IMG/VR virus record: IMGVR_UViG_3300030101_003030
Coordinates: 1 to 56,598 of that record
Strand: one strand, 5' to 3'
Origin: a virus
DNA length: 56,598 bases
The stretch's first letter is position 1. Each line of letters begins with the position of its first letter. Of the stretch, positions 1 to 56,598 are shown in pieces. Below the pieces are notes generated by a model. That model saw nothing but the letters and a program-made list of their open reading frames with translations, ran no database searches and was not told the origin of the DNA. A program made the translations under genes and the position numbers.

Positions 1-84
1 CCAATCACCAAACATTAACTTCTTAAACTCATCAAGAGGGGTGAAATGTTTTGAGTAATACTGATGTAACTCAAGTTCCCACTT
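1..84. repeat. Terminal redundancy, copy 1 (assembly circularity)
   Basis: These 84 bases are identical to the last 84 bases of the window (56515-56598). The primase reading frame runs through the junction without interruption, so the repeat most simply marks a circular assembly whose ends overlap. It is short for a physical terminal repeat and lies inside a gene, so it is probably an assembler overlap. Confidence 0.9.
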
Positions 85-1998
85 ACGCCTTGCAAATGAA
101 TTGCCTGATCCCTTGATGGTATAGTTGGTAGTGATTGCAATCTTAGGAGACTTAGCAAATGGTATCTTGATAGCATCTTTGTTTTTCTTCTCAAGTGTCA
201 GTCCCTCAGTTACTACTGAGAACAATCTCTCAAAGTCAAAGTGTTTTTTTACATCATCAAAGCAAAGTATCTGCGTGTCTGCTGATACAAGTTGATATGC
301 GAAACTCTTTTCAAAAGCAAATGACTTACCATCAATCACTACCACCTTCTTCATCTTCTGTAATGCATTCATAAACAACCCCTTACCTGTGCCACCTTCA
401 GGGTTATCCGAGATGGCTTCATCATTTAGTATTACTGCAGGACAATAGCTGAGGTTTTTATAGCCATGCATTAAATATCCTATCGTTGATTCCATAGATA
501 AGATGCGTACTTGATCCTTGTTACATATGTTGCCAATAAACTTTTTGTAATCACAATCATTTGATTTGCATATGCTAAAGTTCCTATCAATGATATGATC
601 CTTCCATACGTAACCACCCAAATCTAAATAGTCTAGTGGTATTACCTTGTCCTTAGTTATTTTTACTGCACAATTTCTGTAATACAGATATGATGTGTGT
701 TTGGTGTCTTCAATGAAATACACATCAATAGATGACAGGAGAGTTAAGAACTCATCCTTGAAGAACCTAGTGTTATCAGCAAAGTAATTGTATATGCTTA
801 TATCGTCTAGTTCAATGAGGTGATTGAGAATAAAATCTTTTATCTCTTTCTCTGAGGTATGGTCTATTAGATTGTTAACCACTCGAACAAACACGTAGTT
901 TTTACTACCCTCAGGGCAATACTTATAAAAGCCATTATCCTCCAAGAATAGTTTGAATAGTATGTGAACGATCTTGATTGTACCCTTGTCATTCTTAGTC
1001 CAAAAGGTTAGCTTGTCATTATCTTCCTCAGCCCTGTTCAATACTGCCTCAATAACATTATCCTCAATGTCCTTGTCCTTCAACTCATCCCTTACCTCTT
1101 TTTTTGACATGCCACGCTTTAGCTTTATCTTAATGTTATTCACTCGCTCCTCATCCTCATAATATTTTGTTCCAAAGTTCTGAGTGTTTGAGTATGCTGA
1201 GTCAATCGTTCTTATTATCTCACGTTGATTAAAGTCTTTAGTTGCATATTGATTTAGTACATACTTAGCTAACTCTCTGTTGATCCCAAAGTCATTGAAA
1301 GCTGAAGCTAGTACAAAACAATTTTGATTACGCTGTCCCTCTTCCATTGGGAACTTCTTTACCCACCACTTAACAAGTATATCAACTATTTTATTCTCAT
1401 CTGTTATGGGTATGGTAGCTACGTCCCTATGTTTATTTACTTCTTTATACTCCGGCTCTTCAATCTTATCCCACACACTTGAGTTCTCATTGATGTGTAT
1501 CAATGGATCATAACTCTCATAACATACCCTTGATACATTCTTACAGGTCTCATCAAAGTATTCTGAATTGAAATATGTTTTAAGTGAATTGAAATAGTTG
1601 GTATGGTTCTCTTCGTCTTGTGGAATCTTGACAAGTACCTTTAGACCATTACCTGATGGTGATAAGAATACTGAATACACAAATGCGTTCTCACTATACT
1701 TTTGTTTTGCTTCAAGTAAATCTTTTTTCTTTTCAAAGCCATCAAAGTCTAGGCATATCAAACCACTATGCTCAAGTAGTGAAGAATCATTTCGTTTGGT
1801 AAACTTTCCTGAGAAACAGATAGCAGGTAACTTCTTCTTTAGTTCTTGACGTTCAGATTTATTTTTCTCGCTTCTTATATTTTTTACTAACTCTTTGCTA
1901 GTGCCGTTTTTTATTCTATCTAAAATATCCTTTACATCCCTGTAAAATGGGGTGCTTGTGGCTTTAATAGATTGGAATATTGTTATTAAGTGTGTCAT
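1..1998 (-). CDS. VirE-N primase / SF3-like helicase, N-terminal 666 codons (continues at 56598-56095)
   Basis: This is the first part of an 805-residue replication protein that leaves the window at base 1 and resumes at 56514 on the circle. Residues 82-86 (CLDFD) and 113-120 (SPSGNGLK) match the VirE N-terminal (BT4734-like) primase-associated domain typical of Bacteroidota elements. The second half is an SF3/DUF5906-like ATPase with a Walker A GGTGKG at 535-540, a Walker B CFDD at 579-582, an ITTNY sensor-like stretch near 622-626 and an FARRK arginine motif just after. It should prime and unwind DNA for phage replication. The ATG at 1998 sits on two ATGTTGAT iterons (1997-2004, 2014-2021) next to the duplicated control element at 2032-2160, and a terminator separates it from the upstream SSB gene, so it probably has its own promoter. 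The family call is firm; exact domain limits are approximate. Confidence 0.88.
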   Translation of the reverse strand, partial: MTHLITIFQSIKATSTPFYRDVKDILDRIKNGTSKELVKNIRSEKNKSERQELKKKLPAICFSGKFTKRNDSSLLEHSGLICLDFDGFEKKKDLLEAKQKYSENAFVYSVFLSPSGNGLKVLVKIPQDEENHTNYFNSLKTYFNSEYFDETCKNVSRVCYESYDPLIHINENSSVWDKIEEPEYKEVNKHRDVATIPITDENKIVDILVKWWVKKFPMEEGQRNQNCFVLASAFNDFGINRELAKYVLNQYATKDFNQREIIRTIDSAYSNTQNFGTKYYEDEERVNNIKIKLKRGMSKKEVRDELKDKDIEDNVIEAVLNRAEEDNDKLTFWTKNDKGTIKIVHILFKLFLEDNGFYKYCPEGSKNYVFVRVVNNLIDHTSEKEIKDFILNHLIELDDISIYNYFADNTRFFKDEFLTLLSSIDVYFIEDTKHTSYLYYRNCAVKITKDKVIPLDYLDLGGYVWKDHIIDRNFSICKSNDCDYKKFIGNICNKDQVRILSMESTIGYLMHGYKNLSYCPAVILNDEAISDNPEGGTGKGLFMNALQKMKKVVVIDGKSFAFEKSFAYQLVSADTQILCFDDVKKHFDFERLFSVVTEGLTLEKKNKDAIKIPFAKSPKIAITTNYTIKGSGNSFARRKWELELHQYYSKHFTPLDEFKKLMFGDW

Positions 1999-2031
1999 GT
2001 TGATGTCGATTTTATGTTGATTTTATATACG

Positions 2032-2160
2032 TAACTCATTGATAATCAGAGGGGGTGTTGATAATGTTAATTTTTCTTTCTTACATAAGGGGATTAAAAA
2101 TAAAAAAAATAAGAACACTATAGAGAGTATAGCTATAGAAAAAATTAACACCTCAACATC
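2032..2160. promoter_or_regulatory. Duplicated control element, copy 1 (upstream of primase)
   Basis: This non-coding stretch matches 12874-13001 in arrangement. TAACT at 2032, GATAATCAG at 2041, GGTGTTGA at 2054 and ATGTTAA at 2064 form the left arm. AGTATAG lies at 2126, and the mirrored arm TTAACACC (2145) followed by TCAACATC (2153) closes it. Two further ATGTTGAT copies at 1997 and 2014 overlap the primase start. The landmark spacings equal those of the second copy to within a base. Such mirrored iterons suggest an operator or a replication-initiator site; the binding protein is unknown. Confidence 0.65.
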
Positions 2161-2163
2161 GGT

Positions 2164-2189
2164 AAAAAAGGGAGGAACCACCCTCCCTT
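2164..2189 (-). terminator. Rho-independent terminator after the SSB gene
   Basis: On the minus strand an 8-bp stem AAGGGAGG/CCTCCCTT with a 6-base loop is followed by a run of T (2169-2164). It lies just past the SSB stop codon (2212) and before the primase control element, so it should end the leftward early transcript. Confidence 0.8.
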
Positions 2190-2211
2190 ATAAACCATGC
2201 AAGGATAATTA

Positions 2212-2466
2212 TCAGAAGGGTAGATCATCTGTTTTCTTTACTACCTTTTCTTTCTTTTCACTTGGCTTCCAAGTGTCTAACTCTACGTAGTAATTACCAC
2301 TACGAGCCTTGTTAATGTTGAGGTTGATCCAACCATTCTTCATGTTCTTTTTTATGAAAGGTCCTGCATCTTCAACCTTAATACTAACCTGACCTACTAC
2401 AAAGTCAGGTGCGTTTTCTCTTCTTTTAAATGAGAATCCATCTGCAAAAATTTTATCTTCTGCCAT
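2212..2466 (-). CDS. ssb: Single-stranded DNA-binding protein (small phage SSB)
   Basis: This 84-residue protein ends in KKTDDLPF, the acidic tip with a terminal proline-phenylalanine that SSB proteins use to recruit replication and repair partners. The body has alternating hydrophobic residues (VVGQVSIKVED, GWINLNINKA, NYYVELDTW) consistent with a short OB fold. It is shorter than cellular SSB, as is common in phages. It is the last gene before a terminator and follows the exonuclease and annealing genes, with which it should cooperate in recombination and replication. The call rests on the C-terminal tip and the context. Confidence 0.75.
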   Translation of the reverse strand: MAEDKIFADGFSFKRRENAPDFVVGQVSIKVEDAGPFIKKNMKNGWINLNINKARSGNYYVELDTWKPSEKKEKVVKKTDDLPF

Positions 2467-2550
2467 AATATAAATTTAATTTGTCCCAAGATTATTTAGT
2501 TCACAAGGTATCAGGATGGTTGAGACATCCACCTAATACTCCTGTATATT

Positions 2551-3297
2551 TTAAAGTGTTTGATTGATATAGTAATTGTCTAGGTCATCTGTTGGGTTAT
2601 CCCCAAAAAACTTATTATAAACATCAATAGCCCTTTCAACTTTTTCTTCACCACCTCTAATAAAATCTTCTGTTGGTCGAAACATTCCAAGCTGATGTGT
2701 TATCTTATCCACTACTAAAAATATTAGTGGCTTACCAAATAGTTGTTGGTATATATAACACTGACTATCATAGTTGTACTTACGTGCTGACCATCTAAAG
2801 TCTTGTATGTTTGAGGTAGTTTTTAGATCAATCACATTTGTTGGTGTGAGTATGTCTGCCTTACCTTTCCATAGCATACCTTTAATGTTATCAACAGCAG
2901 GTTGTTCATAACTACTACCCTCTTGTGTTATCATATCAAAGAAATCAATGTTACCTCTAATTGTTTTCACAAGTTGTAATATGTTCTCACATTCCTTAGA
3001 TAGTAAAGCTACCTGTACATTATTGTCTGCAATAAATTCTTTGTATGATTTTGAGTTGCGTGATGATACGTCAGCACATAAAGTCTGCATTGCTTTGTCA
3101 GGCTCAAGTAATAACTGATGAAAGTATCTACCCTCAGCAAAGTTTTTGTTATCTTCTTGAGGTACTCTAAACATCTTAGGATTCTTTAGTAGTGTTCCTA
3201 TGTCTGAGTTGCTAAGGTATTGCCTACCTACATCTCCATAATAGTTAGCATCATCCTTTAGTGTTTCAATGATGTCCTTTGTTGCTATTTTACTCAT
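2551..3297 (-). CDS. PD-(D/E)XK exonuclease, RecE/DUF3799-like
   Basis: The 248-residue protein has the hallmarks of phage exodeoxyribonuclease VIII-type nucleases: an N-terminal FAEGRYFHQLL segment with H60, then E131, GKADI with D148, and DLKTT at 157-161 supplying the catalytic D-(x)n-D-x-K core. A conserved ARKYNYDSQCYIYQQ helix follows. It should resect double-strand ends to feed the annealing protein encoded two genes upstream (3592-4173). Its start overlaps the upstream secreted-protein gene by 8 bases, which indicates translational coupling. Confidence 0.82.
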   Translation of the reverse strand: MSKIATKDIIETLKDDANYYGDVGRQYLSNSDIGTLLKNPKMFRVPQEDNKNFAEGRYFHQLLLEPDKAMQTLCADVSSRNSKSYKEFIADNNVQVALLSKECENILQLVKTIRGNIDFFDMITQEGSSYEQPAVDNIKGMLWKGKADILTPTNVIDLKTTSNIQDFRWSARKYNYDSQCYIYQQLFGKPLIFLVVDKITHQLGMFRPTEDFIRGGEEKVERAIDVYNKFFGDNPTDDLDNYYINQTL

Positions 3298-3595
3298 GAT
3301 CTTCAGGCTTTAAAGGTTCATAAACAGTGTGTCCAAGTAATTCTCCTTCATCAAAGTGAGCAATATACTCTAGTTGATTGTGAGGATTGTAATAGTATAT
3401 ATCTCCTGTTATATTTTTATAATGACCAATCAAAAGTTTTAATTTTGCATAGTATTCAACGCTACCATCATCATAAAATAGTGTATCATATATAATCATG
3501 GTGTCTCCTATTATTGTATCAGGATATACAATCTCATCTTGTGCATATATCATTGATGACAATGAGAATGTTATAATTAAAATTAGATTTTTCAT
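3290..3595 (-). CDS. Secreted or periplasmic small protein with signal peptide
   Basis: The 101-residue product starts with a textbook signal peptide: a lysine at position 3, the hydrophobic core LILIITFSLSSMI and a probable cleavage after YA before QDE. The mature part is acidic and tyrosine-rich. The segment YYYNPHNQLEYIAHFDEGEL resembles YwqK/MORN-like repeats, but this is only a resemblance. It lies between the annealing protein and the exonuclease with 4- to 8-base overlaps, an odd place for an exported protein. Superinfection exclusion or surface modification is possible; no function can be assigned. Confidence 0.7.
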   Translation of the reverse strand: MKNLILIITFSLSSMIYAQDEIVYPDTIIGDTMIIYDTLFYDDGSVEYYAKLKLLIGHYKNITGDIYYYNPHNQLEYIAHFDEGELLGHTVYEPLKPEDHE

Positions 3596-4173
3596 TTGAT
3601 TAGTTTTTTTATTTCAGTTTTTACTTTAGTTGTTACATTGTATTTTCTTTGTAGTTGCTCAACAATTTTTGTCAATCCCATTTCCTTGTTTGCTCCTACA
3701 TATTTCAATACCTTATCCCAATTATCATCATTGATATTTAGTTCAATGGTTTTCTTTTGTGTAGGTACAGGCGTTACTTCGGGCAGATCTTCTCCTGTCC
3801 ATAGACTTAACCCTAGACCATGCATAGCTATTGCTTTTGCAGTTGACCTTTGTATTGTTTTGTTTACATCCATTGATGTAATGCTATCTACTTGGATTGA
3901 TCTGTTTCTGTAGTCCATTACAGGTAGGTAGTCTATATGCTCTATGTCATCCACTACTATTCCTACTTTTACATAGGCATAGTTACCATCCGTAAAATAG
4001 TTTAGCCCTGTGTGATCATGTTCATATACTTTCCTTTGTGCTTTAGGATATTTTGTTTTGAGCATAGCCCATGCATTAGCCCATGATAAGTAGTCAAGTT
4101 GTCCCTTGCGTTCTATCTTATCTCTTACTGCAATACTACTTAGTGTTGCGAATACTGATTTAGTTGTTGCCAT
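3592..4173 (-). CDS. Single-strand annealing protein, DUF1071 (Sak3-like)
   Basis: The 193-residue protein carries the DUF1071 signature: LSWANAWAMLK at 29-39, a central strand-rich region (DGNYAYVKVGIVVDD, IEHIDYLPVMD), and the late motif NKTIQRSTAKAIAMHGLGL followed by GEDLP. DUF1071 proteins are phage recombinases that anneal complementary single strands, and here the partner exonuclease and SSB lie directly downstream. The C-terminal part after about residue 140 is lysine-rich and may be a separate DNA-binding tail. The leader AAATCAAATG is shared with several genes in this module. Confidence 0.82.
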   Translation of the reverse strand: MATTKSVFATLSSIAVRDKIERKGQLDYLSWANAWAMLKTKYPKAQRKVYEHDHTGLNYFTDGNYAYVKVGIVVDDIEHIDYLPVMDYRNRSIQVDSITSMDVNKTIQRSTAKAIAMHGLGLSLWTGEDLPEVTPVPTQKKTIELNINDDNWDKVLKYVGANKEMGLTKIVEQLQRKYNVTTKVKTEIKKLIK

Positions 4174-4183
4174 TTGATTTGAT

Positions 4184-4582
4184 TTAATTTATTAATAATT
4201 TATTTAATTTATTTGATGCTCCTCTATAAGATTCAATTAGACTTAACCTTGCTTTTTTGAGTGTCTTGATATGTTTATCATTTTTTCTTGTGTTTACTTC
4301 GTTACGCATTTTATCTTCTACAACTTTTAGTTTTCTTTTGTAGTTAATCAATGCTAACTTATGTACACCTATTACCCATCCGTACTCATAAAAGGTTTGG
4401 TATTGTTCTTCACTTATCTCTTGATAGAAAACACCTATTGTGGTATTGAATATTTGGAATGTATTATTTTCTTTAGTTATTTTTATTCCTTGTCTTAACC
4501 TTGCTTCATATCCTACACCATCAATATTTATACTGACTTCATCTGTGTTTGCTTGATTAAATATGTCATTTAACTTGTACAT
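4184..4582 (-). CDS. Hypothetical protein
   Basis: This 132-residue protein is not recognised. Its N-terminal half looks like a small beta-rich domain (VSINIDGVGYEARLRQGIKI). The C-terminal half is a lysine-rich helix that could bind nucleic acid or form a coiled coil. It overlaps the DnaA-domain gene upstream by 13 bases and precedes the annealing protein, so it is likely part of the replication and recombination set. Confidence 0.6.
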   Translation of the reverse strand: MYKLNDIFNQANTDEVSINIDGVGYEARLRQGIKITKENNTFQIFNTTIGVFYQEISEEQYQTFYEYGWVIGVHKLALINYKRKLKVVEDKMRNEVNTRKNDKHIKTLKKARLSLIESYRGASNKLNKLLIN

Positions 4583-4875
4583 TTTCTTATATCTTCAACC
4601 AAGTCCTTCATGTCTAGGTCATTCTCTAGGTGTCTATTTATTTTTTTAACACCATAGATTACATTTGAATGATCTATCTTATACCCATTATCATCCATAA
4701 ACTTTTGTATGTATGTAATTTTAATTGGACTTTCTCTATTTGCACATAGCCAATACAATAAATGCCTAGCATCTGCACACTCCGATCTTTTGTCCTTAGT
4801 GAATAGTAGATCCGTATCTATTTCGTATGCCTTACATACACTCTTTACGTACTTATTGAATATTTTCTTTTTCAT
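4570..4875 (-). CDS. Stand-alone DnaA domain IV-like DNA-binding protein
   Basis: In this 101-residue protein, RSECADARHLLYWLC at 30-44 followed by DHSNVIYGVKKI at 68-79 reproduces the two helices of the DnaA C-terminal domain, in which the (D)HS(T)V loop reads DnaA boxes. There is no ATPase domain, so it cannot act as a full initiator. It could recognise an origin, recruit host replication proteins or compete with host DnaA. It lies in the replication module between two small genes, overlapping both. Confidence 0.68.
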   Translation of the reverse strand: MKKKIFNKYVKSVCKAYEIDTDLLFTKDKRSECADARHLLYWLCANRESPIKITYIQKFMDDNGYKIDHSNVIYGVKKINRHLENDLDMKDLVEDIRKCTS

Positions 4876-4978
4876 TTGATTTAATTTTTAGTTGTTCATT
4901 TTTTATCTCCTCATCATACTTCCCCTCGCTTGTTTCTTGTTCTCTTATCTCTATAAATTTTTCTTTTACTCTTCCCAT
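4853..4978 (-). CDS. Small hypothetical protein (41 aa)
   Basis: A 41-residue, highly charged helical peptide (start MGRVKEKFIEIREQ, end KENIQ). Its ATG follows an AAATTAAATTGAT leader similar to those of its neighbours, and its end overlaps the DnaA-domain gene by 23 bases. It fills an otherwise empty gap, which supports it being real. No function is suggested. Confidence 0.5.
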   Translation of the reverse strand: MGRVKEKFIEIREQETSEGKYDEEIKNEQLKIKSNEKENIQ

Positions 4979-4979
4979 A

Positions 4980-5378
4980 TCAATTTAATTTAGTTTTAAT
5001 TATTTCTTTTACTTGATTGTTCCAAAAGTATTCTTCTGCTTTGTCAAGTGTAGTTGTCAGGAACACCACTCCATTACACTTCACATAATACTCATCAGTG
5101 TTTAGATATTGTATATAAAGATCATCAAAGTATTTAATTATAAACTTACAATCTTTATGTAGCACACTTTTATCAATGCCCTTGCTGTCTAATGATATTG
5201 CTCTTGCCATTTTTCTAAAGTCTTTCAATTCAATCTCATCTTTTTTATCAGCCATCCTTTGTAGCTTACGTATGTATTTTATATTAGGTCTAAGCCTTAA
5301 CTTCTCTGCTATTATTTCTGTGAATAAAAAGTTCATTACTTTATTATTGTTTGTATAAATATAGTTATTTGTTTTCAT
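4980..5378 (-). CDS. Hypothetical protein
   Basis: 132 residues, lysine-rich and helical in the first half (EIIAEKLRLRPNIKYIRKLQR), with a more globular second half (DDLYIQYLNTDEYYVKCNGVVFLTTTLDKA). No family is recognised. The start is inside the end of the upstream gene (4-base overlap). There is no matching promoter, so it is probably transcribed with the early block. Confidence 0.6.
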   Translation of the reverse strand: MKTNNYIYTNNNKVMNFLFTEIIAEKLRLRPNIKYIRKLQRMADKKDEIELKDFRKMARAISLDSKGIDKSVLHKDCKFIIKYFDDLYIQYLNTDEYYVKCNGVVFLTTTLDKAEEYFWNNQVKEIIKTKLN

Positions 5379-5656
5379 AATTCAAAATTAAATCTTCTGT
5401 ACCACTTACCATCAATTAGTTTCTTATCTGATTCTTTCCAATCGTTTCTGTATTGTGTAGGTAGATGACCTGCTTCAATAACTATTGGTAGTTTAAGATG
5501 AAGTGCTTCGTCTATTTCAAGTGCGCTCTCTAGGTGTGATTCTGTTTCATCATCATGCAGTGCATAAAGATCAATGATACCCAATAGCTTATCAGCTATC
5601 TCCGTTACATCAATGAAAACAAAATTATCTTTCTTTGTTATTATTAATCTGTTCAT
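5375..5656 (-). CDS. Hypothetical protein
   Basis: This 93-residue acidic protein contains a compact helix LYALHDDETESHLESALEID and ends in an aromatic-rich tail (DGKWYRRFNFEL). It resembles conserved unknown proteins of Bacteroidota phages, from memory only. Its ATG is preceded by the block leader ACAAATAGAT, and it is the last gene of the block that uses this leader. Confidence 0.6.
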   Translation of the reverse strand: MNRLIITKKDNFVFIDVTEIADKLLGIIDLYALHDDETESHLESALEIDEALHLKLPIVIEAGHLPTQYRNDWKESDKKLIDGKWYRRFNFEL

Positions 5657-5658
5657 AT

Positions 5659-5946
5659 CTATTTGTTTTTATTGTATTCATTTATAAATTCTACTACTGC
5701 ATTGTAAACATCTTCTCTCTGTCCATATGGTACGATATCCATTAGGTTTTCTCTGTACTCGTTCTCCAAATACTTTTCATCTTTTGTTATCTTAGATACC
5801 ACAGGCATTAACCAATCCCAAGAGGTGTGAAATTTTAATTCATTTAGAGGAATCCAATCTCCACTATTATAAATTCTTTTATAGTATTCTCCGTTACTCT
5901 CCTCCATGCCCATAAATTCTGCTATTAATTTGTTTTCTGTTTTCAT
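5659..5946 (-). CDS. Hypothetical protein
   Basis: A 95-residue acidic protein with a tryptophan-rich middle (SGDWIPLNELKFHTSWDWLMPVVSKI). No known family is recognised. It carries the AAATAGATATG start context of the 5.6-8.4 kb block. A promoter-like element lies 37 bases upstream of its ATG at 5983-6007, so it may begin a sub-operon. Confidence 0.6.
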   Translation of the reverse strand: MKTENKLIAEFMGMEESNGEYYKRIYNSGDWIPLNELKFHTSWDWLMPVVSKITKDEKYLENEYRENLMDIVPYGQREDVYNAVVEFINEYNKNK

Positions 5947-5982
5947 ATCTATTTATTTTATTTGTTATTTACACAATGCTTA

Positions 5983-6007
5983 CACTAATATAACGAATTA
6001 ATTACAC
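5983..6007 (-). promoter_or_regulatory. Promoter-like element, third and weaker copy of the TATTATTAKAACG-N9-CAC motif
   Basis: In plus-strand notation this reads CACTAATATAACG (10 of 13 matches to the copies at 8640 and 12055), nine bases, then CAC, with the same spacing as those copies. TTACAC is repeated four times around it. It stands upstream of a leftward gene, like the other copies, and may be an internal early promoter. Confidence 0.4.
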
Positions 6008-6036
6008 ATAAGTTACACATTGATTTGTTAAAAATG

Positions 6037-6210
6037 TTAAAATTTATTTAACTTCCTGTTAGTCAGCACTTTAACTATAAGATTTTTTCTTTCTGTTATT
6101 TCAAAGATCATCTTCATATATGCCCTTTCGTGTGCTTCATATTTACTATCGGCAATACCTCTCCACACTTCTTTGTTGTTCTGTTTGTTTACTACTTTAT
6201 AATGTTTCAT
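6037..6210 (-). CDS. Small hypothetical protein (57 aa)
   Basis: A 57-residue basic protein beginning MKHYKVVNKQNNKEVWRGIA and ending TNRKLNKF. It has an N-terminal beta-hairpin-like stretch and a charged helix (EAHERAYMKMIFEITER). The start context AAATAGACATG is the block-specific leader, which strongly supports the start. Function unknown. Confidence 0.6.
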   Translation of the reverse strand: MKHYKVVNKQNNKEVWRGIADSKYEAHERAYMKMIFEITERKNLIVKVLTNRKLNKF

Positions 6211-6216
6211 GTCTAT

Positions 6217-6288
6217 TTATTTTAGTTTATATATTCTTATTTTGTATCTCAATATATTCAATCTGAATATGGTTTTATATCTGCTCAT
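6217..6288 (-). CDS. Possible 23-aa basic peptide
   Basis: A 23-residue arginine/lysine-rich reading frame starts right beside the stop codon of the upstream gene (6290) and ends within the leader of the next gene. Coupling and position are consistent with a gene, but it is short and its start has no leader match. It may be spurious. Confidence 0.25.
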   Translation of the reverse strand: MSRYKTIFRLNILRYKIRIYKLK

Positions 6289-6289
6289 G

Positions 6290-6544
6290 TTATTCACTTT
6301 CTTGTTTCTTTTTAAATATTCCTTTTGCTTCTGATTGTTCGTCAATCATCTCAAAGATGTTCTCCATTAACCACTCACTTTGCATTACACTATCCAAAAC
6401 ATTTAATGCTTCCTCTGATGTGCAGTCATACTTAATCATCACATCATCAACGTGCCATAAGTTTTCGGTATAGTTACCTCTTAATTCTAACTCTTGTCTC
6501 AAGTCCTCGCTTGATACCTCTTTTAAATCTATTTCTTTTTTCAT
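6290..6544 (-). CDS. Hypothetical protein
   Basis: This 84-residue acidic protein has the central segment WHVDDVMIKYDCTSEEALNV, which resembles small conserved proteins of Bacteroidota phages and could be a helical bundle. It has the AACAAATAGATATG start context. Function unknown. Confidence 0.62.
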   Translation of the reverse strand: MKKEIDLKEVSSEDLRQELELRGNYTENLWHVDDVMIKYDCTSEEALNVLDSVMQSEWLMENIFEMIDEQSEAKGIFKKKQESE

Positions 6545-6556
6545 ATCTATTTGTTT

Positions 6557-6997
6557 TTATGTTATTTCGTTTTCATAATTCTTTTTACATTCTTTACTGC
6601 AATACTCTTCGCCAACCTCAATCTCTTCTCCACAATAGCAGAAACTTTCTTCTTCATAATCCTCTAGGAAACTTTCTATCTCACTTCTCAATTCAGAAAA
6701 TTCTTCTCTGCATTTTTGTGATTTTAAAAGTGAAGCAAGTAACTCACTATTAATATCTATTGGTCTACATCCGTAGTCATCTGCTAAGGCCATGCTCTCC
6801 CGTAAACTTGCATCATTTTCTTTTAGATATTCAATAGCATTGTAGTAGTATATTACCTCTTGTTGAAATGCTCCTTGATCTTCTAGTTGTTCATATAGCT
6901 CATCATAATTTTCTATATCCTCTGCATAAACATATTCATTAATACTAAAGTCTAATTGCTCACTTAACTCTTCAAAAAATTCTTCTTTCTTATTCAT
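6557..6997 (-). CDS. Hypothetical protein with C-terminal zinc-ribbon-like cysteines
   Basis: This 146-residue acidic protein is largely helical. It ends with CYCGEEIEVGEEYCSKEC, four cysteines in two pairs that could hold a zinc ion. Such knuckles often mediate nucleic-acid or protein contacts. It lies in the early block of tiny genes and has the block-specific leader. A host-takeover role is plausible but unproven. Confidence 0.62.
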   Translation of the reverse strand: MNKKEEFFEELSEQLDFSINEYVYAEDIENYDELYEQLEDQGAFQQEVIYYYNAIEYLKENDASLRESMALADDYGCRPIDINSELLASLLKSQKCREEFSELRSEIESFLEDYEEESFCYCGEEIEVGEEYCSKECKKNYENEIT

Positions 6998-7003
6998 ATC
7001 TAT

Positions 7004-7183
7004 TTATTTATTTGGTTTAACATCATATACTTCTCCACTCAAATCATAATCACAAGTCCATCCTATTGATTCTAGTTCAACTTTAATCCTTGCACATTCT
7101 TTATATAAACTTTCGTTGTCATCATAAGAGTTTACTATATCTTTTATCTCTTGTGGAAAGTTATCATATTCTTCTGCTGTCAT
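7004..7183 (-). CDS. Small hypothetical protein (59 aa)
   Basis: A 59-residue acidic protein starting MTAEEYDNFPQEIKDIVNSY. It contains the helix ESLYKECARIKVELE followed by GWTCDYDLSGEVYDV, a pattern I associate with small conserved proteins of flavobacterial phages. The ATG follows the block leader AACAAATAGAT. Function unknown. Confidence 0.65.
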   Translation of the reverse strand: MTAEEYDNFPQEIKDIVNSYDDNESLYKECARIKVELESIGWTCDYDLSGEVYDVKPNK

Positions 7184-7195
7184 ATCTATTTGTTT

Positions 7196-7459
7196 TTAAA
7201 GTTCATATTGGTTTAATATCTTATTAATCTTTTTTGTATGCAAACTTTTAAGGTAAGTTGCTTTAATCATTCTTTGCAATGTATATTTGAATGAGTTCAT
7301 ATTTCCTAAGTTTACATTTTTTGCATCACCTATATCTATTCTTTCATATTGGTCGTAGTCTGCTTTTGAATTTAGTATTGCTATGAATTTGGTTACCTCC
7401 TCGTTTAATTCATCTTCTGCTTTTTGCAGTATTCTTTCATTTAATTTATCTGTTGTCAT
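7196..7459 (-). CDS. Hypothetical protein
   Basis: 87 residues, mostly helical and mixed-charge. The C-terminal part is basic (LQRMIKATYLKSLHTKKINKIL). It has the block leader AAATAGATATG. Not recognised. Confidence 0.58.
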   Translation of the reverse strand: MTTDKLNERILQKAEDELNEEVTKFIAILNSKADYDQYERIDIGDAKNVNLGNMNSFKYTLQRMIKATYLKSLHTKKINKILNQYEL

Positions 7460-7461
7460 AT

Positions 7462-7662
7462 CTATTTATTTATTTGGTTTATAATTGTATTTATTTTATT
7501 TAATGTTTCATATTGGTTTACCTGTACACTACTTGCTATCTCAATGAAGTAACAATCATCTTGTTCAATCAAGTCTTTATATGTCATCTTTGTTTCCTCT
7601 TGATTCATTTGTATTGATGTTGATATCTCAAATAGTTCTTTCAATAATTCTTTCTTTGTCAT
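7462..7662 (-). CDS. Small hypothetical protein (66 aa)
   Basis: A 66-residue helical protein with two similar stretches: ISTSIQMNQEETK near 13-25 and IASSVQVNQYETL near 42-54. This suggests an internal duplication of a short helical unit. Start context ACAAATAGACATG. Function unknown. Confidence 0.58.
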   Translation of the reverse strand: MTKKELLKELFEISTSIQMNQEETKMTYKDLIEQDDCYFIEIASSVQVNQYETLNKINTIINQINK

Positions 7663-7673
7663 GTCTATTTGTT

Positions 7674-8054
7674 TTAGTCTATTGATATTAGTGTTCCGTT
7701 TATTTCTTCATATTGCATATCTTCTTCGCATTCCCATTCAGTATAGTAAACATAGTCAACATGATACCCAATCGTTAATAAATCTTTGTCAGTATCTTTG
7801 TTTTTCTTTGCGCTGTTTAATGCTGACTCTAATTCTTTTAAGTCATCATCATTGTGTATTGTATCTAGTTCATCTAAATCACACCCAAGATTATTGATTG
7901 CTTCAAGTATATACTCTCTATCTTTTCTGCATTCTTTCAATGTCAATTCTAATGTTGAGGTATAGAACTCTCCATCTCCCCATATCCACCCATCATTCAT
8001 TCCCTCTCCTGTTATATCACATTGTCTTGCCCATAATATTTTTTCTGTTGTCAT
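7674..8054 (-). CDS. Hypothetical protein conserved in phages
   Basis: This 126-residue acidic protein has an N-terminal motif RQCDITGEGMNDGWIWGDG and a C-terminal YYTEWECEED segment. I recall this combination from small unknown proteins of many phages. The cysteines (10, 60, 114 approximately) are too far apart for an obvious zinc site. It has the block leader ACAAATAGACATG. Function unknown. Confidence 0.62.
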   Translation of the reverse strand: MTTEKILWARQCDITGEGMNDGWIWGDGEFYTSTLELTLKECRKDREYILEAINNLGCDLDELDTIHNDDDLKELESALNSAKKNKDTDKDLLTIGYHVDYVYYTEWECEEDMQYEEINGTLISID

Positions 8055-8056
8055 GT

Positions 8057-8236
8057 CTATTTGTTTTTAGTTATTAATACTTTCTCTAAATAATCTCTAA
8101 TGATGTCTTGATATTGAAATTCAGTTGACTCATCAGTATCTATACGATTAGGGCATAATCCCTCATCTACAAATTTATTTACGATACCCACAGCAATACT
8201 TGCTATTATAGTTTTATCAAATTTTTTCTTTGTCAT
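8057..8236 (-). CDS. Small hypothetical protein (59 aa)
   Basis: A 59-residue protein starting MTKKKFDKTIIASIAVGIV, with a hydrophobic N-terminal helix and an acidic middle (VDEGLCPNRIDTDESTEF). Its TAG stop lies inside the AAATAGACATG leader of the next gene, so translation of the pair is probably coupled. Confidence 0.58.
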   Translation of the reverse strand: MTKKKFDKTIIASIAVGIVNKFVDEGLCPNRIDTDESTEFQYQDIIRDYLEKVLITKNK

Positions 8237-8238
8237 GT

Positions 8239-8385
8239 CTATTTGTTTTTAAGTTCATATATTTTTTCGTCTATATACCTCATGTACATAAAGTCTTGTT
8301 TGTTAATAGGCTTTTTTAATTCTCTTTTTAAACATTCTATCCAAAAGTTTAAATCTTTTTTGTTTGTTTTATTTTCTGTGTTCAT
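8239..8385 (-). CDS. Small hypothetical protein (48 aa)
   Basis: A 48-residue basic helical protein (start MNTENKTNKKDLNFWIEC, end KIYELKNK). Its TAG stop is contained in the leader of the following gene and it has the leader AAATAGATATG itself. Function unknown. Confidence 0.55.
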   Translation of the reverse strand: MNTENKTNKKDLNFWIECLKRELKKPINKQDFMYMRYIDEKIYELKNK

Positions 8386-8412
8386 ATCTATTTATTTTAG
8401 TTAGTTAAATTA

Positions 8413-8432
8413 TGGGGGCTTTTACACCCCCA
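8413..8432 (-). terminator. Intergenic hairpin, weak terminator or attenuator
   Basis: TGGGGG and CCCCCA form a 6-bp stem around an 8-base loop between the genes ending at 8441 and starting at 8385. The minus-strand downstream sequence is AT-rich without a clean T run, so it may be a processing or attenuation site rather than a full terminator. Confidence 0.4.
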
Positions 8433-8440
8433 AGTTTAGA

Positions 8441-8578
8441 TTATATTGTTGGAATGTCAACATCAACTCCATGCACTACTGCAAAGTAGATTCCTACAAA
8501 AGCTAATGTACTTGTTGCCAATCCTACGAAGATAATTTTAACCCTATCTTCAATGGTTAATTTTTGAAACGATTTCAT
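8441..8578 (-). CDS. Small membrane protein (45 aa)
   Basis: A 45-residue protein with a charged N-terminus (MKSFQKLTIEDRVK) followed by a single membrane segment IIFVGLATSTLAFVGIYFAVV and a short polar tail. It is the first gene downstream of the control element at 8640-8713 and does not use the block leader. Tiny early membrane proteins often affect host membrane or exclusion functions, but nothing specific is shown. Confidence 0.55.
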   Translation of the reverse strand: MKSFQKLTIEDRVKIIFVGLATSTLAFVGIYFAVVHGVDVDIPTI

Positions 8579-8639
8579 GTCCTAATAATTTATCGTGTTT
8601 CACTTTGCTTACTCTCATCAAGGTTTTTCAGCTACCTCC

Positions 8640-8713
8640 TATTATTATAACGTGCATATTACACTTTTGTTACACTTATTTTATTTATTTTTTATATTTA
8701 TAATCATTCTAAA
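8640..8713 (-). promoter_or_regulatory. Early control element, copy B: TATTATTATAACG-N9-CACTTTTGT plus 17-bp palindrome
   Basis: In plus notation TATTATTATAACG (8640-8652), nine bases and CACTTTTGT (8662-8670) match the element at 12055 exactly in spacing and with one change in the 13-mer. Read leftward, it gives a TATAAT-like box. TTTATAAT-C-ATTCTAAA at 8697-8713 is a near-perfect palindrome and is followed by AAG, so AATCATTCTAAATAAG (8702-8717) is also shared with 12149-12164. It heads the 5.4-8.6 kb block and is probably a repressible early promoter. Confidence 0.6.
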
Positions 8714-8724
8714 TAAGGTTTGTA

Positions 8725-8862
8725 TTAATATAGTCCTATTCCTTTTATTGTTCTACAATCATCATCATATAATACAATCCATTTATAATTTATACTTATA
8801 TCCAATGTATCATAGTTTATTAATTCAATCCATTTGTTTTGTTGGTGCTTATAAAATTTCAT
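8725..8862 (-). CDS. Small hypothetical protein (45 aa)
   Basis: A 45-residue protein starting MKFYKHQQNKWIELINYDTL, with WIVLYDDDCRTIKG near the end, probably a small beta-rich fold. Its leader AAATAAAAAAGATG belongs to the upstream block type. Function unknown. Confidence 0.5.
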   Translation of the reverse strand: MKFYKHQQNKWIELINYDTLDISINYKWIVLYDDDCRTIKGIGLY

Positions 8863-8867
8863 CTTTT

Positions 8868-8948
8868 TTATTTTAGATCTTTTTCGTTTAGTTTATATTG
8901 CATACATAATAATATGCTTATCAGTATTGTTGTTGCTATTGTGTTCAT
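8868..8948 (-). CDS. Possible 26-aa membrane peptide
   Basis: A 26-residue frame, MNTIATTILISILLCMQYKL followed by six polar residues, would form one membrane helix. It sits exactly between two leader-bearing genes and has an A-rich leader itself. It is too short to be certain. Confidence 0.35.
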   Translation of the reverse strand: MNTIATTILISILLCMQYKLNEKDLK

Positions 8949-8949
8949 T

Positions 8950-9132
8950 TTATTTGTTTTTAGTTATTGTATTATAATTATTATCTATCCATTTTTTTAC
9001 GTCTATGAATCTGAAATTTTGTTCATTAACCAATGCCTTTATTATTTCCTTTTTTGACATTCTTTCTTGTGTTTTAATATACCATTTTGATATACGAATT
9101 GCTTTTAAATTAAATTTATTTTTTGCTTTCAT
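8950..9132 (-). CDS. Small basic hypothetical protein (60 aa)
   Basis: 60 residues, strongly basic (KAIRISKWYIKTQERMSKKE), with a predicted helix-turn-helix-like arrangement that cannot be confirmed by eye. Start context AAAATAAGATG, the leader of the 8.9-11.8 kb block. Function unknown. Confidence 0.55.
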   Translation of the reverse strand: MKAKNKFNLKAIRISKWYIKTQERMSKKEIIKALVNEQNFRFIDVKKWIDNNYNTITKNK

Positions 9133-9133
9133 C

Positions 9134-9352
9134 TTATTTTATTTTAGTTAATGTTTTTTTATTATAATCTAGTTCTTTTATTGCTCCAATATATATATCC
9201 CCTTTATCATCATCATCATCAAACCATTCATTGAGAGTACAAATCACATCTTCAATTAATAAATCACATGATTTTATTCTTTGTATCAAAAGTTCATTTT
9301 CTTTTTTTAACTGCTTTATTACATCATTTAACTTTTCTATATCTTTTGTCAT
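9134..9352 (-). CDS. Small coiled-coil hypothetical protein (72 aa)
   Basis: 72 residues. The first 30 form a heptad-rich helix (IEKLNDVIKQLKKENELLIQRI), followed by an acidic stretch with five consecutive aspartates. It has the block leader AAATAAGATG. Function unknown. Confidence 0.55.
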   Translation of the reverse strand: MTKDIEKLNDVIKQLKKENELLIQRIKSCDLLIEDVICTLNEWFDDDDDKGDIYIGAIKELDYNKKTLTKIK

Positions 9353-9358
9353 CTTATT

Positions 9359-9523
9359 TTATTTTAAATTAAATTTTTGTTTATATCCCTCTTTTGTTAA
9401 CTGCATAATTATTTGACTTATACAATTGAAAGTATTTTCATCTTCTTTTTCTTGTTCAAATATTACAATTTCATCATTACGTATATCATATGAATAATTT
9501 CTTAATTTATTTTTAGTTTTCAT
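9359..9523 (-). CDS. Small hypothetical protein (54 aa)
   Basis: A 54-residue protein beginning MKTKNKLRNYSYDIRNDEIV and ending GYKQKFNLK. Its start has the AAATAAGATG block leader and its stop abuts the leader of the next gene. Function unknown. Confidence 0.55.
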   Translation of the reverse strand: MKTKNKLRNYSYDIRNDEIVIFEQEKEDENTFNCISQIIMQLTKEGYKQKFNLK

Positions 9524-9524
9524 C

Positions 9525-9821
9525 TTATTTTATTTTAGTTAATTTTCCATCCCATAATTCACCATTTAAAAACCATTGAAAGTTTTTTTGTCTTATGCTT
9601 ACATTTGGCAAAGCATTTAGACGTTCTTTAGTGGTATTTGATTCCCATCCACAATTAGTTATAAATATCTCATTGTTTTCATTTAAAATTGCTATTGTAT
9701 TCCCGTGTAGTTCTAAATGGGTTTCATTATTATAATTGTTTAATGTTACTTCCATGTTTTGCTTTTTGAATTTCGTTCTGTTCAAAAATGCGTTGATTGA
9801 TTCTTCTGTTATTTTTCTCAT
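9525..9821 (-). CDS. Hypothetical protein
   Basis: This 98-residue protein looks beta-rich, with repeated strand patterns (MEVTLNNYNNETHLELHGNT, IAILNENNEIFITNCGWESN). No family is recognised. It starts in an AAATAAAATG context, 19 bases from the TATTATTATAACG motif at 9840. Confidence 0.58.
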   Translation of the reverse strand: MRKITEESINAFLNRTKFKKQNMEVTLNNYNNETHLELHGNTIAILNENNEIFITNCGWESNTTKERLNALPNVSIRQKNFQWFLNGELWDGKLTKIK

Positions 9822-9839
9822 TTTATTTTATTTTAGGTT

Positions 9840-9852
9840 TATTATTATAACG
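9840..9852 (-). promoter_or_regulatory. TATTATTATAACG motif, isolated copy
   Basis: The 13-mer is identical to the one at 8640-8652 and lies 19 bases upstream of a leftward ATG (9821). It lacks the CAC at the expected distance and lacks the palindrome, so it may be a weaker internal promoter or a chance AT-rich match. Confidence 0.35.
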
Positions 9853-9859
9853 TTCTTAA

Positions 9860-10102
9860 TTAGTAATTATTGTGTAAATATTGGTAAATATCAAAATTAT
9901 ATATCTCCTCATCATTTTTATCATTTAGACTATATATGCTTAATGTATTTATAAATTCAAATACTATTTTTCTATTGTGGTAATTTAAAAATACTTCACA
10001 AATATTATCAATGCAGTTTATTAATTCATGTTTACAATTTACTTCTATTGCATGACAATAATGACTATTGTTTTTTATACACTCTTCTATTATCTTGTTC
10101 AT
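9860..10102 (-). CDS. Hypothetical protein
   Basis: An 80-residue protein with several cysteine and histidine residues in the first third (CIKNNSHYCHAIEVNCKHELINC), possibly metal-binding, and an acidic C-terminus. It is preceded by a GAGGGGG/CCCCCTC hairpin and an AACCAAACAAGATG leader. Function unknown. Confidence 0.55.
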   Translation of the reverse strand: MNKIIEECIKNNSHYCHAIEVNCKHELINCIDNICEVFLNYHNRKIVFEFINTLSIYSLNDKNDEEIYNFDIYQYLHNNY

Positions 10103-10117
10103 CTTGTTTGGTTTTAT

Positions 10118-10135
10118 GAGGGGGTTGCCCCCCTC
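10118..10135. other. Intergenic hairpin 1 of 3 in the early block
   Basis: GAGGGGG-TTGC-CCCCCTC sits between two leftward genes, 15 bases upstream of the ATG at 10102. Two similar hairpins occur at 10405-10422 and 10686-10703 in the same position. No T run follows on the minus strand, so RNA processing or stability is as likely as termination. Confidence 0.6.
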
Positions 10136-10164
10136 GATTAATATTATTTTATTTTAGGTTATTA

Positions 10165-10389
10165 TTATCTGTTTTCGTACTCTTCAAAATCTAAACCGAT
10201 ACACTCGCAAAGGAATTGTTCTTCAAACCAAAACAAATCATTTATTTGTGTTTCTGTTGGTGGTTCTTGATGATAAATATCTTCTAAGATATATTCAATT
10301 TCTTTTAATTCAGTATATGTGAACTCATGTTCTTTTGCTCCACTCCAAAAATTGAAGTCTGTTAAATTTAATTCTGTTGTGTATTTCAT
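10165..10389 (-). CDS. Hypothetical protein conserved in phages
   Basis: A 74-residue acidic protein starting MKYTTELNLTDFNFWSGAK. It contains ELKEIEYILEDIY and INDLFWFEEQFLCECIGLDF, a combination I recall from small conserved phage proteins. The ATG at 10389 is chosen over an in-frame start eight codons upstream because it follows the AACCAAACAAG leader and leaves the hairpin at 10405-10422 outside the gene. Function unknown. Confidence 0.62.
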   Translation of the reverse strand: MKYTTELNLTDFNFWSGAKEHEFTYTELKEIEYILEDIYHQEPPTETQINDLFWFEEQFLCECIGLDFEEYENR

Positions 10390-10404
10390 CTTGTTTGGTT
10401 TTGT

Positions 10405-10422
10405 GAGGGGCAAAAGCCCCTC
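10405..10422. other. Intergenic hairpin 2 of 3 in the early block
   Basis: GAGGGGC-AAAA-GCCCCTC, a 7-bp perfect stem 15 bases upstream of the ATG at 10389. It shares the outer GAGGGG/CCCCTC pairs and the following CACAAAACC leader with the hairpins at 10118 and 10686. Confidence 0.6.
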
Positions 10423-12788: not shown

Positions 12789-12822
12789 AAAGGGTTACCC
12801 GAAACGGTAGCCCTTTATTTTT
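12789..12822 (+). terminator. Rho-independent terminator
   Basis: AAAGGGTTACC and GGTAGCCCTTT form an 11-bp stem with one G-U pair around the loop CGAAAC, followed by ATTTTT. It closes the unit of the 12567 gene ahead of the iteron region. Confidence 0.85.
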
Positions 12823-13001
12823 GGTGTTAATTTTTATTTTAATGGTGTTGATTTGGTGTTGATTATTTATAGCTAACTACTTGATTATCAGTAGTGGTGT
12901 TAATAATGTTGATTTTTAAGCCTCGTATGTAGAAATAAAAAATAGAAGTAATAGGAATATATATATAGTATAGGAACACCATTTTTCAACACCTCAACAC
13001 C
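12823..13001. promoter_or_regulatory. GGTGTTRA iteron array and duplicated control element, copy 2 (upstream of GroEL)
   Basis: GGTGTTAA or GGTGTTGA occurs at 12823, 12844, 12855 and 12896, AATGTTGA at 12905, and mirrored TCAACACC at 12986 and 12994. From TAACT at 12874 through GATTATCAG (12883), GGTGTTAA (12896), AGTATAG (12967) to the mirrored pair, the order and spacing copy the element at 2032-2160. The GroEL promoter lies just downstream. It is likely a multi-site operator or origin. Confidence 0.65.
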
Positions 13002-13020: not shown

Positions 13021-13028
13021 TATCTTTG
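13021..13028 (+). promoter_or_regulatory. GroEL promoter box (TATCTTTG)
   Basis: TATCTTTG lies 22 bases before the groEL ATG, with TTG at 13002 as a possible upstream box. It directly follows the iteron element, so binding there could control the chaperonin operon. Confidence 0.7.
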
Positions 13029-54872: not shown

Positions 54873-56098
54873 ATAAATTGTTTTTTAAAATGGTTAAGTG
54901 TATAATCTTTCTTCTTGGTTACTGTTTTATATATCTGCTTTTCAATGCCACCTTTAGCAAAGATCCAATACACATCGTTATGTAACCTGTCTTTAGTGGT
55001 CATCCTATCTCTACTCTGCCAATAAGACGTAGCACTAAAGTCAATGTTATAATACACAAGTGCTGATGCCTGTCGCAATGACAGTCCCTCCCTACCACTA
55101 ACAATCTGCAGGGCTATTGACTTGTCAGTAGATTCAAACTCACCAAGCTCAGTGGTAAGCTCATCACCAAACACATCCTTCATTGCCTTGAGTTCTGCTG
55201 TAAACTTGTAGAAGATTCCAATCTTCTTACCCTTGAAATGTTTCTTAATAAACTCAGCCTTACTGTAGTCCATCACCATAGAACTGCCTGACTCAAACTT
55301 AACTGTGCCTGAGAACATCTGATGTAACTTCATCATTAACTTTACAGGTGTGTCAGCAAGTATGGTTTCTTTCTTTCCCTCGATCACCAAGTCTTTCTGC
55401 AACCTCTTGGTCATATCATAAGTATATGGTTTCATCTCCACCTCTAATACTTTCTCTGTAGTCTTGACCTTAAATCCTGCGTTCTCCTGCGTGAAACGGA
55501 TGGTGTATGGTGTCATCATATCTATAATCTTTTTAAGTCCCTTAGAATAGTCGTTAATGAACATTCCGTTGATTTTTTTCTGTGTTACTTTCACATACTC
55601 ATGAGCAAACTTATAAAAGTTTGTGCAATGCTTGAAAGGATTGTTAGGAATACCATACACCTGATGGTACATCTGTGAGTAAGACTCAGGTGTAGGTGTT
55701 CCCGACATCAATATAACTTTGCTATTACATTTTTGTATCAAATCTTTTACTGACTTCGCTCTCTTGTTTGGCTTGGCAAATGCACCAAGACTATGTGCCT
55801 CATCACATATGATCACGTCCCACTTAACATCAGGTAACTTATGCATACTTTCATAGTTAATTGTAAACAATATATAATTAGTAGGGCATAACATATCAAA
55901 ATCCTTAGTGATTGAGCTGATTGCCTTCTTCTTAGTCAAGAAGAGTACGTGTTCAACATTAAGTTTCTCACATATACCAAGACTTGTTAGTGTCTTTCCG
56001 GTCCTAACTTCCATAGCAAGATATAAGAAGTCGTGTGCTTCTATTATAGATGTTCCTAGTTCTATAATAGATAACTGATAATCTCTGTATTCTATCAT
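54869..56098 (-). CDS. SNF2-type superfamily 2 DNA helicase
   Basis: A 409-residue helicase with motif I RTGKT (about 32-36), a DEAH box CDEAH (98-102), motif III SGTP (132-135) and, late, VSGREGLSLRQASALVYYNI and YWQSRDRM as motifs V and VI. The start at 56098 (MIEYRDYQ) is chosen because it forms a four-base ATGA overlap with the primase stop at 56095. A longer start at 56152 would overlap the primase by 58 bases. It lies with the primase and probably remodels replication forks. Confidence 0.88.
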   Translation of the reverse strand: MIEYRDYQLSIIELGTSIIEAHDFLYLAMEVRTGKTLTSLGICEKLNVEHVLFLTKKKAISSITKDFDMLCPTNYILFTINYESMHKLPDVKWDVIICDEAHSLGAFAKPNKRAKSVKDLIQKCNSKVILMSGTPTPESYSQMYHQVYGIPNNPFKHCTNFYKFAHEYVKVTQKKINGMFINDYSKGLKKIIDMMTPYTIRFTQENAGFKVKTTEKVLEVEMKPYTYDMTKRLQKDLVIEGKKETILADTPVKLMMKLHQMFSGTVKFESGSSMVMDYSKAEFIKKHFKGKKIGIFYKFTAELKAMKDVFGDELTTELGEFESTDKSIALQIVSGREGLSLRQASALVYYNIDFSATSYWQSRDRMTTKDRLHNDVYWIFAKGGIEKQIYKTVTKKKDYTLNHFKKQFI

Positions 56099-56598
56099 AG
56101 CTTCAATGTTCCTGTTTCTTCTACGTCTTGTTTGCGTAAAAATATTATCCACTTACCATGCTTGTCTCTTCCGTCTTTTGGTTCAACGCCATGGTGGTAC
56201 TTTCCATAATCATTTAACCATCTATAAAATTCAGTACGTGAGATCTTCATATTACCTCTTGATGAATAGTCAGGGTAGTCCTCAATAAACTCCAAGTACA
56301 GATCCTGCTTATATGTTTTTACATTGGGCGTAAGTAATGTATTGAAAGGATAACCCTCAAGTAAACCACACCACTCCAAGAAGTCTTTACTTGTATCTCT
56401 TATGAGGTTTTTAAGATGAGCGTTAACTAATTCACTCTTAACAAAACCTTTTTCTAAGTAATACTGTAAACAACTTATCATGTAGTTATCAAAGATACAC
56501 CACTCATCATCATCCCAATCACCAAACATTAACTTCTTAAACTCATCAAGAGGGGTGAAATGTTTTGAGTAATACTGATGTAACTCAAGTTCCCACTT
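56095..56598 (-). CDS. VirE-N primase / SF3-like helicase, C-terminal part (starts at 1998 across the circle)
   Basis: This is the last part of the 805-residue primase whose start is at 1998. In the circular genome the frame continues from base 1 into 56514, and 56515-56598 repeats 1-84. The visible segment contains FGDWDDDEWCIFDNYM, a helical middle, and a winged-helix-like end (SRTEFYRWLNDYGKYHHGVE). It stops at 56095 with a TGA that overlaps the helicase start. Confidence 0.85.
   Translation of the reverse strand, partial: KWELELHQYYSKHFTPLDEFKKLMFGDWDDDEWCIFDNYMISCLQYYLEKGFVKSELVNAHLKNLIRDTSKDFLEWCGLLEGYPFNTLLTPNVKTYKQDLYLEFIEDYPDYSSRGNMKISRTEFYRWLNDYGKYHHGVEPKDGRDKHGKWIIFLRKQDVEETGTLKL
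56515..56598. repeat. Terminal redundancy, copy 2
   Basis: Exact copy of bases 1-84. It shows that the sequence closes on itself and that the unique genome runs from 1 to 56514. Confidence 0.9.

What the first reader, a model, noticed from the sequence alone, without database searches (positions are those of the whole stretch)
2032..2160. A 129-bp control element is duplicated 10.8 kb away, beside primase and beside GroEL
The order TAACT, GATWATCAG, GGTGTTRA, AATGTTRA, AGTATAG, TYAACACC, TCAACAYC occurs at 2032-2160 and 12874-13001. Gaps between landmarks are equal to within a base, although the filler sequence between them differs. Extra iterons extend outward: ATGTTGAT at 1997 and 2014, overlapping the primase start, and GGTGTTRA at 12823, 12844 and 12855. 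Conservation of arrangement with loss of filler identity means a protein-binding architecture under selection. It could couple replication onset to chaperonin expression, or be a pair of origins.
Basis: partly seen in the sequence, partly recalled or inferred. Interest (0 to 1): 0.78.

Follow-up and report, generated by a model that had tools for sequence, protein, structure and literature searches.

The report
Twin iteron origins in a phage
A family of viruses of Bacteroidota bacteria keeps two matching clusters of short DNA repeats about 11 kb apart, most likely landing pads where the virus's own primase-helicase starts copying the genome, and the repeat 'password' differs between viruses but is shared by both clusters of each one.

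Summary
The two copies (A 2032-2160, B 12874-13001) align end to end with score 94, against at most 50 for 200 shuffles, and are the only two in the circular 56.5-kb phage genome. The same architecture occurs in 42 relatives compared genome-wide: B in all 42, A in 40, always as direct repeats (median spacing 10.7 kb). It consists of direct iterons on an 11-bp ladder, an IHF-type box, two inner iterons 8-9 bp apart, an AT-rich stretch, and inverted iterons. Inner iterons shift only by whole helical turns (+24, +34/35, +46). Iteron letters differ between phages but agree within a phage (class agreement 39/41). Of the proteins tested, only the primase-helicase tracks iteron type clearly. Half of its best-associated columns lie in its C-terminal domain, predicted as a winged helix. 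DnaA-IV, the 14868-15305 regulator and GroEL do not track it. Best reading: a pair of iteron origins bound by the phage's primase-helicase, working like phage P4 (ori + crr, alpha protein) or PICI origins. Coupling to chaperonin expression is not supported, since B also persists away from groEL. No binding or replication has been measured. Whether both copies fire, or one assists the other, is unknown.

The parts
1993..2022 (+). Element A outer iterons on an 11-bp ladder: TGTCATG (1993), TGTCGAT (2004), TGTTGAT (2015); the first overlaps the primase start codon (1998-1996, minus strand)
   Evidence: Sequence; ladder at about -17/-28/-39/-50 across 84 elements
2032..2044 (-). Element A IHF-type box (minus strand TATCAATGAGTTA, matches WATCAANNNNTTR)
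   Evidence: Sequence; at most 1 mismatch in 65/84 elements, partly circular because anchors were chosen by a similar pattern
2054..2071 (+). Element A inner iteron pair GGTGTTGA (2054) and ATGTTAAT (2064), TG starts 9 bp apart
   Evidence: pair conserved at +24 from the box
2072..2144 (.). Element A AT-rich tract, candidate unwinding region, ending in AGTATAGCTATAG
   Evidence: Sequence; AT-rich tract in relatives; unwinding is inferred
2145..2160 (-). Element A inverted iterons (TTAACACC, TCAACATC)
   Evidence: inverted iterons cluster about 84-102 bp from the first inner iteron
2166..2191 (-). Hairpin plus T-run, terminator-like, between the SSB-like gene and element A
   Evidence: Read from sequence and seen in relatives; not reported by the pattern scan
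12789..12821 (+). Intrinsic terminator-like site before element B
   Evidence: 11-pair stem followed by T-rich tail
12823..12863 (+). Element B outer iterons GGTGTTAA (12823), GGTGTTGA (12844), GGTGTTGA (12855)
   Evidence: ladder
12874..12886 (-). Element B IHF-type box (minus strand AATCAAGTAGTTA, matches WATCAANNNNTTR)
   Evidence: Sequence
12896..12913 (+). Element B inner iteron pair GGTGTTAA (12896), ATGTTGAT (12906)
12914..12985 (.). Element B AT-rich tract with TATATATATAGTATAG
   Evidence: Sequence; conserved in relatives
12986..13001 (-). Element B inverted iterons TCAACACC x2
13021..13028 (+). TATCTTTG, Bacteroidota-type -7 promoter motif of groEL, outside the element
   Evidence: TAnnTTTG within 100 bp upstream of groEL in 39/42 genomes, of primase in 3/42
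1..1998 (-). Primase-helicase, first part (805 aa in all; continues across the circle junction at 56514 to 56095); proposed iteron binder
   Evidence: BT4734-like_N, PriCT_1, DUF5906; covaries with the iterons
56095..56442 (-). C-terminal domain of the primase-helicase (about aa 690-805), predicted winged helix
   Evidence: AlphaFold pLDDT 87.7; 10 of the 20 best iteron-associated columns in aa 701-805
4570..4875 (-). DnaA domain IV-like protein, conserved in 45/46 relatives; tested as iteron binder and not supported
   Evidence: Bac_DnaA_C; partial Mantel 0.06

Best explanation
A and B are two iteron-type replication initiation sites (origins, or an origin plus an origin-like helper site) of a Bacteroidota tailed phage. 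The phage's own 805-aa primase-helicase binds the iterons through its C-terminal winged-helix domain. An IHF/HU-type protein bends the DNA between outer and inner iterons, the AT-rich tract before the inverted iterons melts, and the helicase loads and primes there. Shown here: the architecture, its conservation in both places, its helical phasing, the concerted change of iteron sequence in the two copies, and the association of iteron type with the primase, most clearly its C-terminal domain. Inferred: binding, bending, melting, replication start, and any division of labour between the copies. B was found in every genome compared, so it may be the main site, with A auxiliary and perhaps autoregulatory because its outer iterons overlap the primase start.
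For: Architecture in 43 genomes, B 43/43 and A 41/43, always direct repeats. Ladder at about -17/-28/-39/-50; inner pair at +24, +34/35 or +46, so shifts of one or two helical turns. A and B share iteron class in 39/41 genomes and own pairs are closer than random pairings, P 1e-4. Partial Mantel with iteron distance: primase 0.42, others at most 0.18; with B alone, primase C-term 0.34, P 0.002, against groEL 0.03. 10 of the 20 top columns in aa 701-805, P 8e-4, at helix 2, recognition helix and wing of a predicted winged helix. Precedents: two iteron sets flanking an AT-rich region in PICI origins (PMC6092414); P4 alpha binds origin repeats by a winged helix (PMC4234260); RepA/ori covariation proven by swaps in PLEs (PMC8263062).
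Against: No binding or replication data. Iteron class changes only 3-6 times on the trees, so the covariation rests on few independent events and related phages inflate P values. Primase aa 71-210 show a similarly strong signal. Homology of the domain to the P4 origin-binding domain is not significant (1ka8 rank 18, E 0.27; no sequence match). G006 and G007 lack A. GC skew does not settle the origin.
Confidence: 0.65

Rival explanations
1. A and B are operators: a phage regulator binds the iterons to time expression of primase and groEL together.
For: Both lie upstream of a gene start; in the window the last inverted iteron of B ends about 20 bp before the groEL -7 motif, and A overlaps the primase start. 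Autoregulation by the initiator is common in iteron systems (general knowledge), so a secondary regulatory role is possible.
Against: The gene-near end is the inverted iterons at groEL but the outer iterons at primase. B persists away from groEL in G038 and is separated from the groEL promoter by a tRNA or other inserts in L026 and L020. The TAnnTTTG motif is upstream of groEL in 39/42 genomes but of primase in 3/42. The regulator 14868-15305 does not covary with the iterons (-0.09).
Confidence: 0.15
2. The conserved phage DnaA domain IV-like protein, not the primase-helicase, is the iteron binder; the sites are still origins.
For: Present in 45/46 relatives, Bac_DnaA_C match, HSSIIHGI resembles the DnaA HTH signature, and TGTCGATAA or TGTTGATAA is one base from a DnaA box on the other strand (own observation).
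Against: Its divergence does not track iteron type (partial r 0.06, P 0.20), and neither does the second DnaA-IV-like protein (0.08). A slowly changing contact set could hide covariation.
Confidence: 0.12
3. A and B are recombination, packaging or partition sites (attachment site with arm sites and IHF, cosB-like, or centromere-like).
For: Repeats around an IHF-type box are also known from attP and lambda cosB (general knowledge).
Against: No tyrosine integrase or resolvase family match in 18 genomes, while controls ring. Two copies in most genomes; B is about 9 kb from the terminase. Iterons track the primase rather than the terminase (0.42 against 0.07). ParA/ParB-type genes were not searched for.
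Confidence: 0.05

Closest known systems
Phage P4 replicon (alpha protein, ori and crr)
   Same: Primase-helicase fusion with a C-terminal DNA-binding winged helix proposed to bind short iterons; two separate cis-acting sites with the same iterons (P4 ori/crr from general knowledge; winged helix from PMC4234260).
   Different: Here the primase is BT4734-like rather than Toprim; each site has a full set of iterons, IHF-type box and AT tract; sites are about 11 kb apart; the phage is not a satellite; homology of the binding domain not shown.
PICI/SaPI Pri-Rep origins
   Different: PICIs have one origin 3' of rep; here there are two elements, one 5' of primase and one about 11 kb away by groEL, with an IHF-type box.
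PLE RepA/ori modules
   Same: DNA-binding domain of the initiator covaries with the origin, proven by swaps (PMC8263062).
   Different: PLE RepA is a RepA_N protein with three roughly 30-bp repeats and one origin.
Iteron plasmid origins with IHF sites
   Same: Phased direct repeats, IHF-type bend, AT-rich unwinding region (general knowledge).
   Different: Initiator proposed here is a fused primase-helicase; inverted iterons lie beyond the AT tract; two copies per genome.

Membership tests
P4-type replicon | Initiator fuses primase, helicase and C-terminal winged helix | tested here: met
   Primase N-domain, PriCT_1 and DUF5906 helicase; predicted winged helix
P4-type replicon | Toprim-type primase | tested here: not met
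   BT4734-like_N and PriCT_1 instead; so it is not filed as a P4 member
P4-type replicon | Winged helix homologous to the P4 origin-binding domain | tested here: inconclusive
   1ka8 at rank 18, E 0.27; no sequence match
P4-type replicon | Two cis sites sharing iterons | tested here: met
   A and B share iteron class in 39/41 genomes
P4-type replicon | Both sites needed for replication; initiator binds both | not testable with these tools
   Needs experiments; G006 and G007 have only B
PICI-type origin | Two iteron sets flanking an AT-rich region | tested here: met
PICI-type origin | Single origin immediately 3' of rep | tested here: not met
   A is 5' of primase and B about 11 kb away
IHF site | WATCAANNNNTTR consensus and IHF binding | tested here: inconclusive
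   Consensus met in both window copies; at most 1 mismatch in 65/84 elements; binding untested and host protein unknown
Site-specific recombination site | Cognate integrase or resolvase in the phage | tested here: not met
   0 of 18 genomes for PF00589 and PF00239

The most novel reading that the evidence does not exclude
A phage family whose genome carries two full iteron origins in direct orientation that must stay matched in specificity, acting together as one bipartite origin (for example bridged by primase-helicase), with a private primase-iteron code in each lineage so that co-infecting relatives cannot use each other's initiator.
Probability: 0.3. Interest if true: 0.8.

Novelty: new variant of a known kind. 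Interest (0 to 1): 0.62.

Why it matters
Replication origins of most uncultured tailed phages are unknown. This gives a candidate, readable origin for a family of GroEL-carrying Bacteroidota phages, with a natural series of paired iteron types and recognition-domain variants that makes the specificity code testable. It also raises a plain question: why does a 57-kb phage keep two matching sites, and is this a P4-like bipartite origin in a non-satellite phage? A short paper search found no description of it, which is not proof of absence.

Tried and rejected
DnaA-IV protein as the specificity factor: attractive because the iterons are one base from DnaA boxes, but no covariation. Regulator 14868-15305: none. 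groEL/primase operator: orientation, promoter and the G038, L020 and L026 cases speak against it. Integration or recombination site: no integrase or resolvase. GC skew as proof of the origin: minimum often near B, but confounded by gene direction and by edge effects of my script; third-position skew inconclusive. Near-identical DNA in the phage collection: none for 1-13500. P4 domain by sequence: no match. AGTATAG as a landmark: 14 in the window, not specific. Elemovirus GroEL phages: primase resembles ours only in the N-terminal part; their origin was not examined. The tree test is weak: 3 changes of iteron class on the primase C-term tree against 4-6 on other trees.

Full report
What was claimed and whether it is there. 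The two copies exist at the stated places. The 129-bp stretch 2032-2160 aligns end to end with 12874-13000 at score 94, while 200 dinucleotide shuffles of it never exceed 50 against the same genome. A core pattern with up to 3 mismatches finds exactly these two sites in the genome. The window is a circular phage genome of 56,514 bp (84-bp terminal overlap); the primase gene starts at 1998 and runs across the junction to 56095.

Relatives. GroEL and primase searches of IMG/VR gave 160 loci. I took 42 near-complete genomes of relatives and compared them with the window (43 in all). All have primase and groEL on opposite strands in the same arrangement. Upstream of groEL (B) and of primase (A) the same architecture appears again and again, with different iteron letters. 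B is in 43/43, counting G038, where it lies near the other end of the contig, after a homologue of the small gene 12567-12764 and away from groEL. A is in 41/43, absent from G006 and G007. Some anchors were set by hand (five A, two B, plus G038 B), so those counts are softer. A k-mer search starting from B found the primase-upstream site as the best other place in the whole genome for roughly 30 of the 43. The complete phage genome MW202828 from Manatee Spring also has both. Genome-bin hits include a Cytophagales and an Aureispira bin, which fits Bacteroidota hosts; other hits were in bins labelled Aliivibrio, so the host is tentative.

Anatomy. Reading along the element: outer iterons with TG starts at about -17, -28, -39 and -50 from the box, an 11-bp ladder; the box TAACTNNTTGATW; the inner iteron pair, 9 bp apart in 70 of 83 elements and 8 bp in 12; an AT-rich tract often ending TATATATATAG; then one or two inverted iterons. 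The first inner iteron starts at +23 to +25 in 64 of 84 elements, +33 to +35 in 15 and +46 in 2; 3 at +28 come from hand-set anchors. The shifts are thus about one and two helical turns. Except for the hand-set ones, anchors were chosen without looking at the iterons, so the ladder is not built in. The box, read on the other strand, is a perfect IHF consensus in both window copies. Across relatives the match is partly circular, because anchors were picked by a similar pattern.

Both copies share one code. Within a phage, A and B carry the same iteron class (C or T at position four) in 39 of 41 genomes, and own pairs are closer than random pairings (P 1e-4). Rarer types also match between copies, such as TGACGA in G012 and TACCTAC in the record behind L026 and L146. 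Related phages resemble each other, so the P values overstate independence.

Who reads the code. Partial rank Mantel tests, controlling for terminase and portal distance, give 0.42 for the primase-helicase and at most 0.18 for the other proteins tested. Using B alone, which is about 10 kb from the primase, the primase C-term still gives 0.34 (P 0.002), while groEL next door gives 0.03, so simple hitchhiking of A with primase does not explain it. Within the primase the signal is strong at aa 701-805 and also at 71-210. In a non-redundant set of 59 phages with C or T class iterons, 10 of the 20 best-associated columns lie in aa 701-805 (P 8e-4); residues 734 and 735 are Y and K in 35 of 37 C-type phages and vary in T-type. 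AlphaFold predicts a winged helix there (pLDDT 87.7), and columns 734/735, 760/763/774 and 784/785 fall at the start of helix 2, in the recognition helix and at the wing tip. Foldseek hits are mainly winged-helix proteins, including the P4 origin-binding domain 1ka8 at rank 18, but none is significant. On trees the class changes only 3 to 6 times, so this is suggestive rather than proven.

Reading. The best account is a pair of iteron origins bound by the phage primase-helicase. It works like P4 and PICI replicons (PMC4234260, PMC6092414), and repeat/initiator covariation has been shown by experiment for PLE satellites (PMC8263062). It is not filed as a P4 member, because the primase type differs and homology of the binding domain was not shown. 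Coupling to chaperonin expression is not needed and not supported. Whether A and B both fire, or B fires and A assists or restrains primase expression, is open; two genomes with B alone suggest B is the main site.

Noticed in passing
L-loci and genomes G003, G004 and others: Most relatives carry a second DnaA domain IV-like protein of about 140-210 aa downstream of the helicase; the window and its close relatives G001, G002 and G009 appear to lack it.
   Followed up: partly
window 2212-2466: 84-aa protein before element A ends in DDLPF, like the tail of single-strand binding proteins, though no family model matched.
   Followed up: no
window 21154-21717: Protein just upstream of the terminase has a weak C-terminal Cpn10 match below the curated cut-off, in addition to the gene called groES here at 14645-14902; an Elemovirus record annotates a cpn10 protein just before its terminase-like gene.
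   Followed up: no
window 42317-51505: A 3062-aa open frame, very large for a 57-kb phage genome.
   Followed up: no
L019, upstream of groEL: This more distant relative has ATGTTGA-type repeats and a long TAATAATAA/TATATATA tract but no clear IHF-type box, possibly a degenerate or variant form.
   Followed up: no
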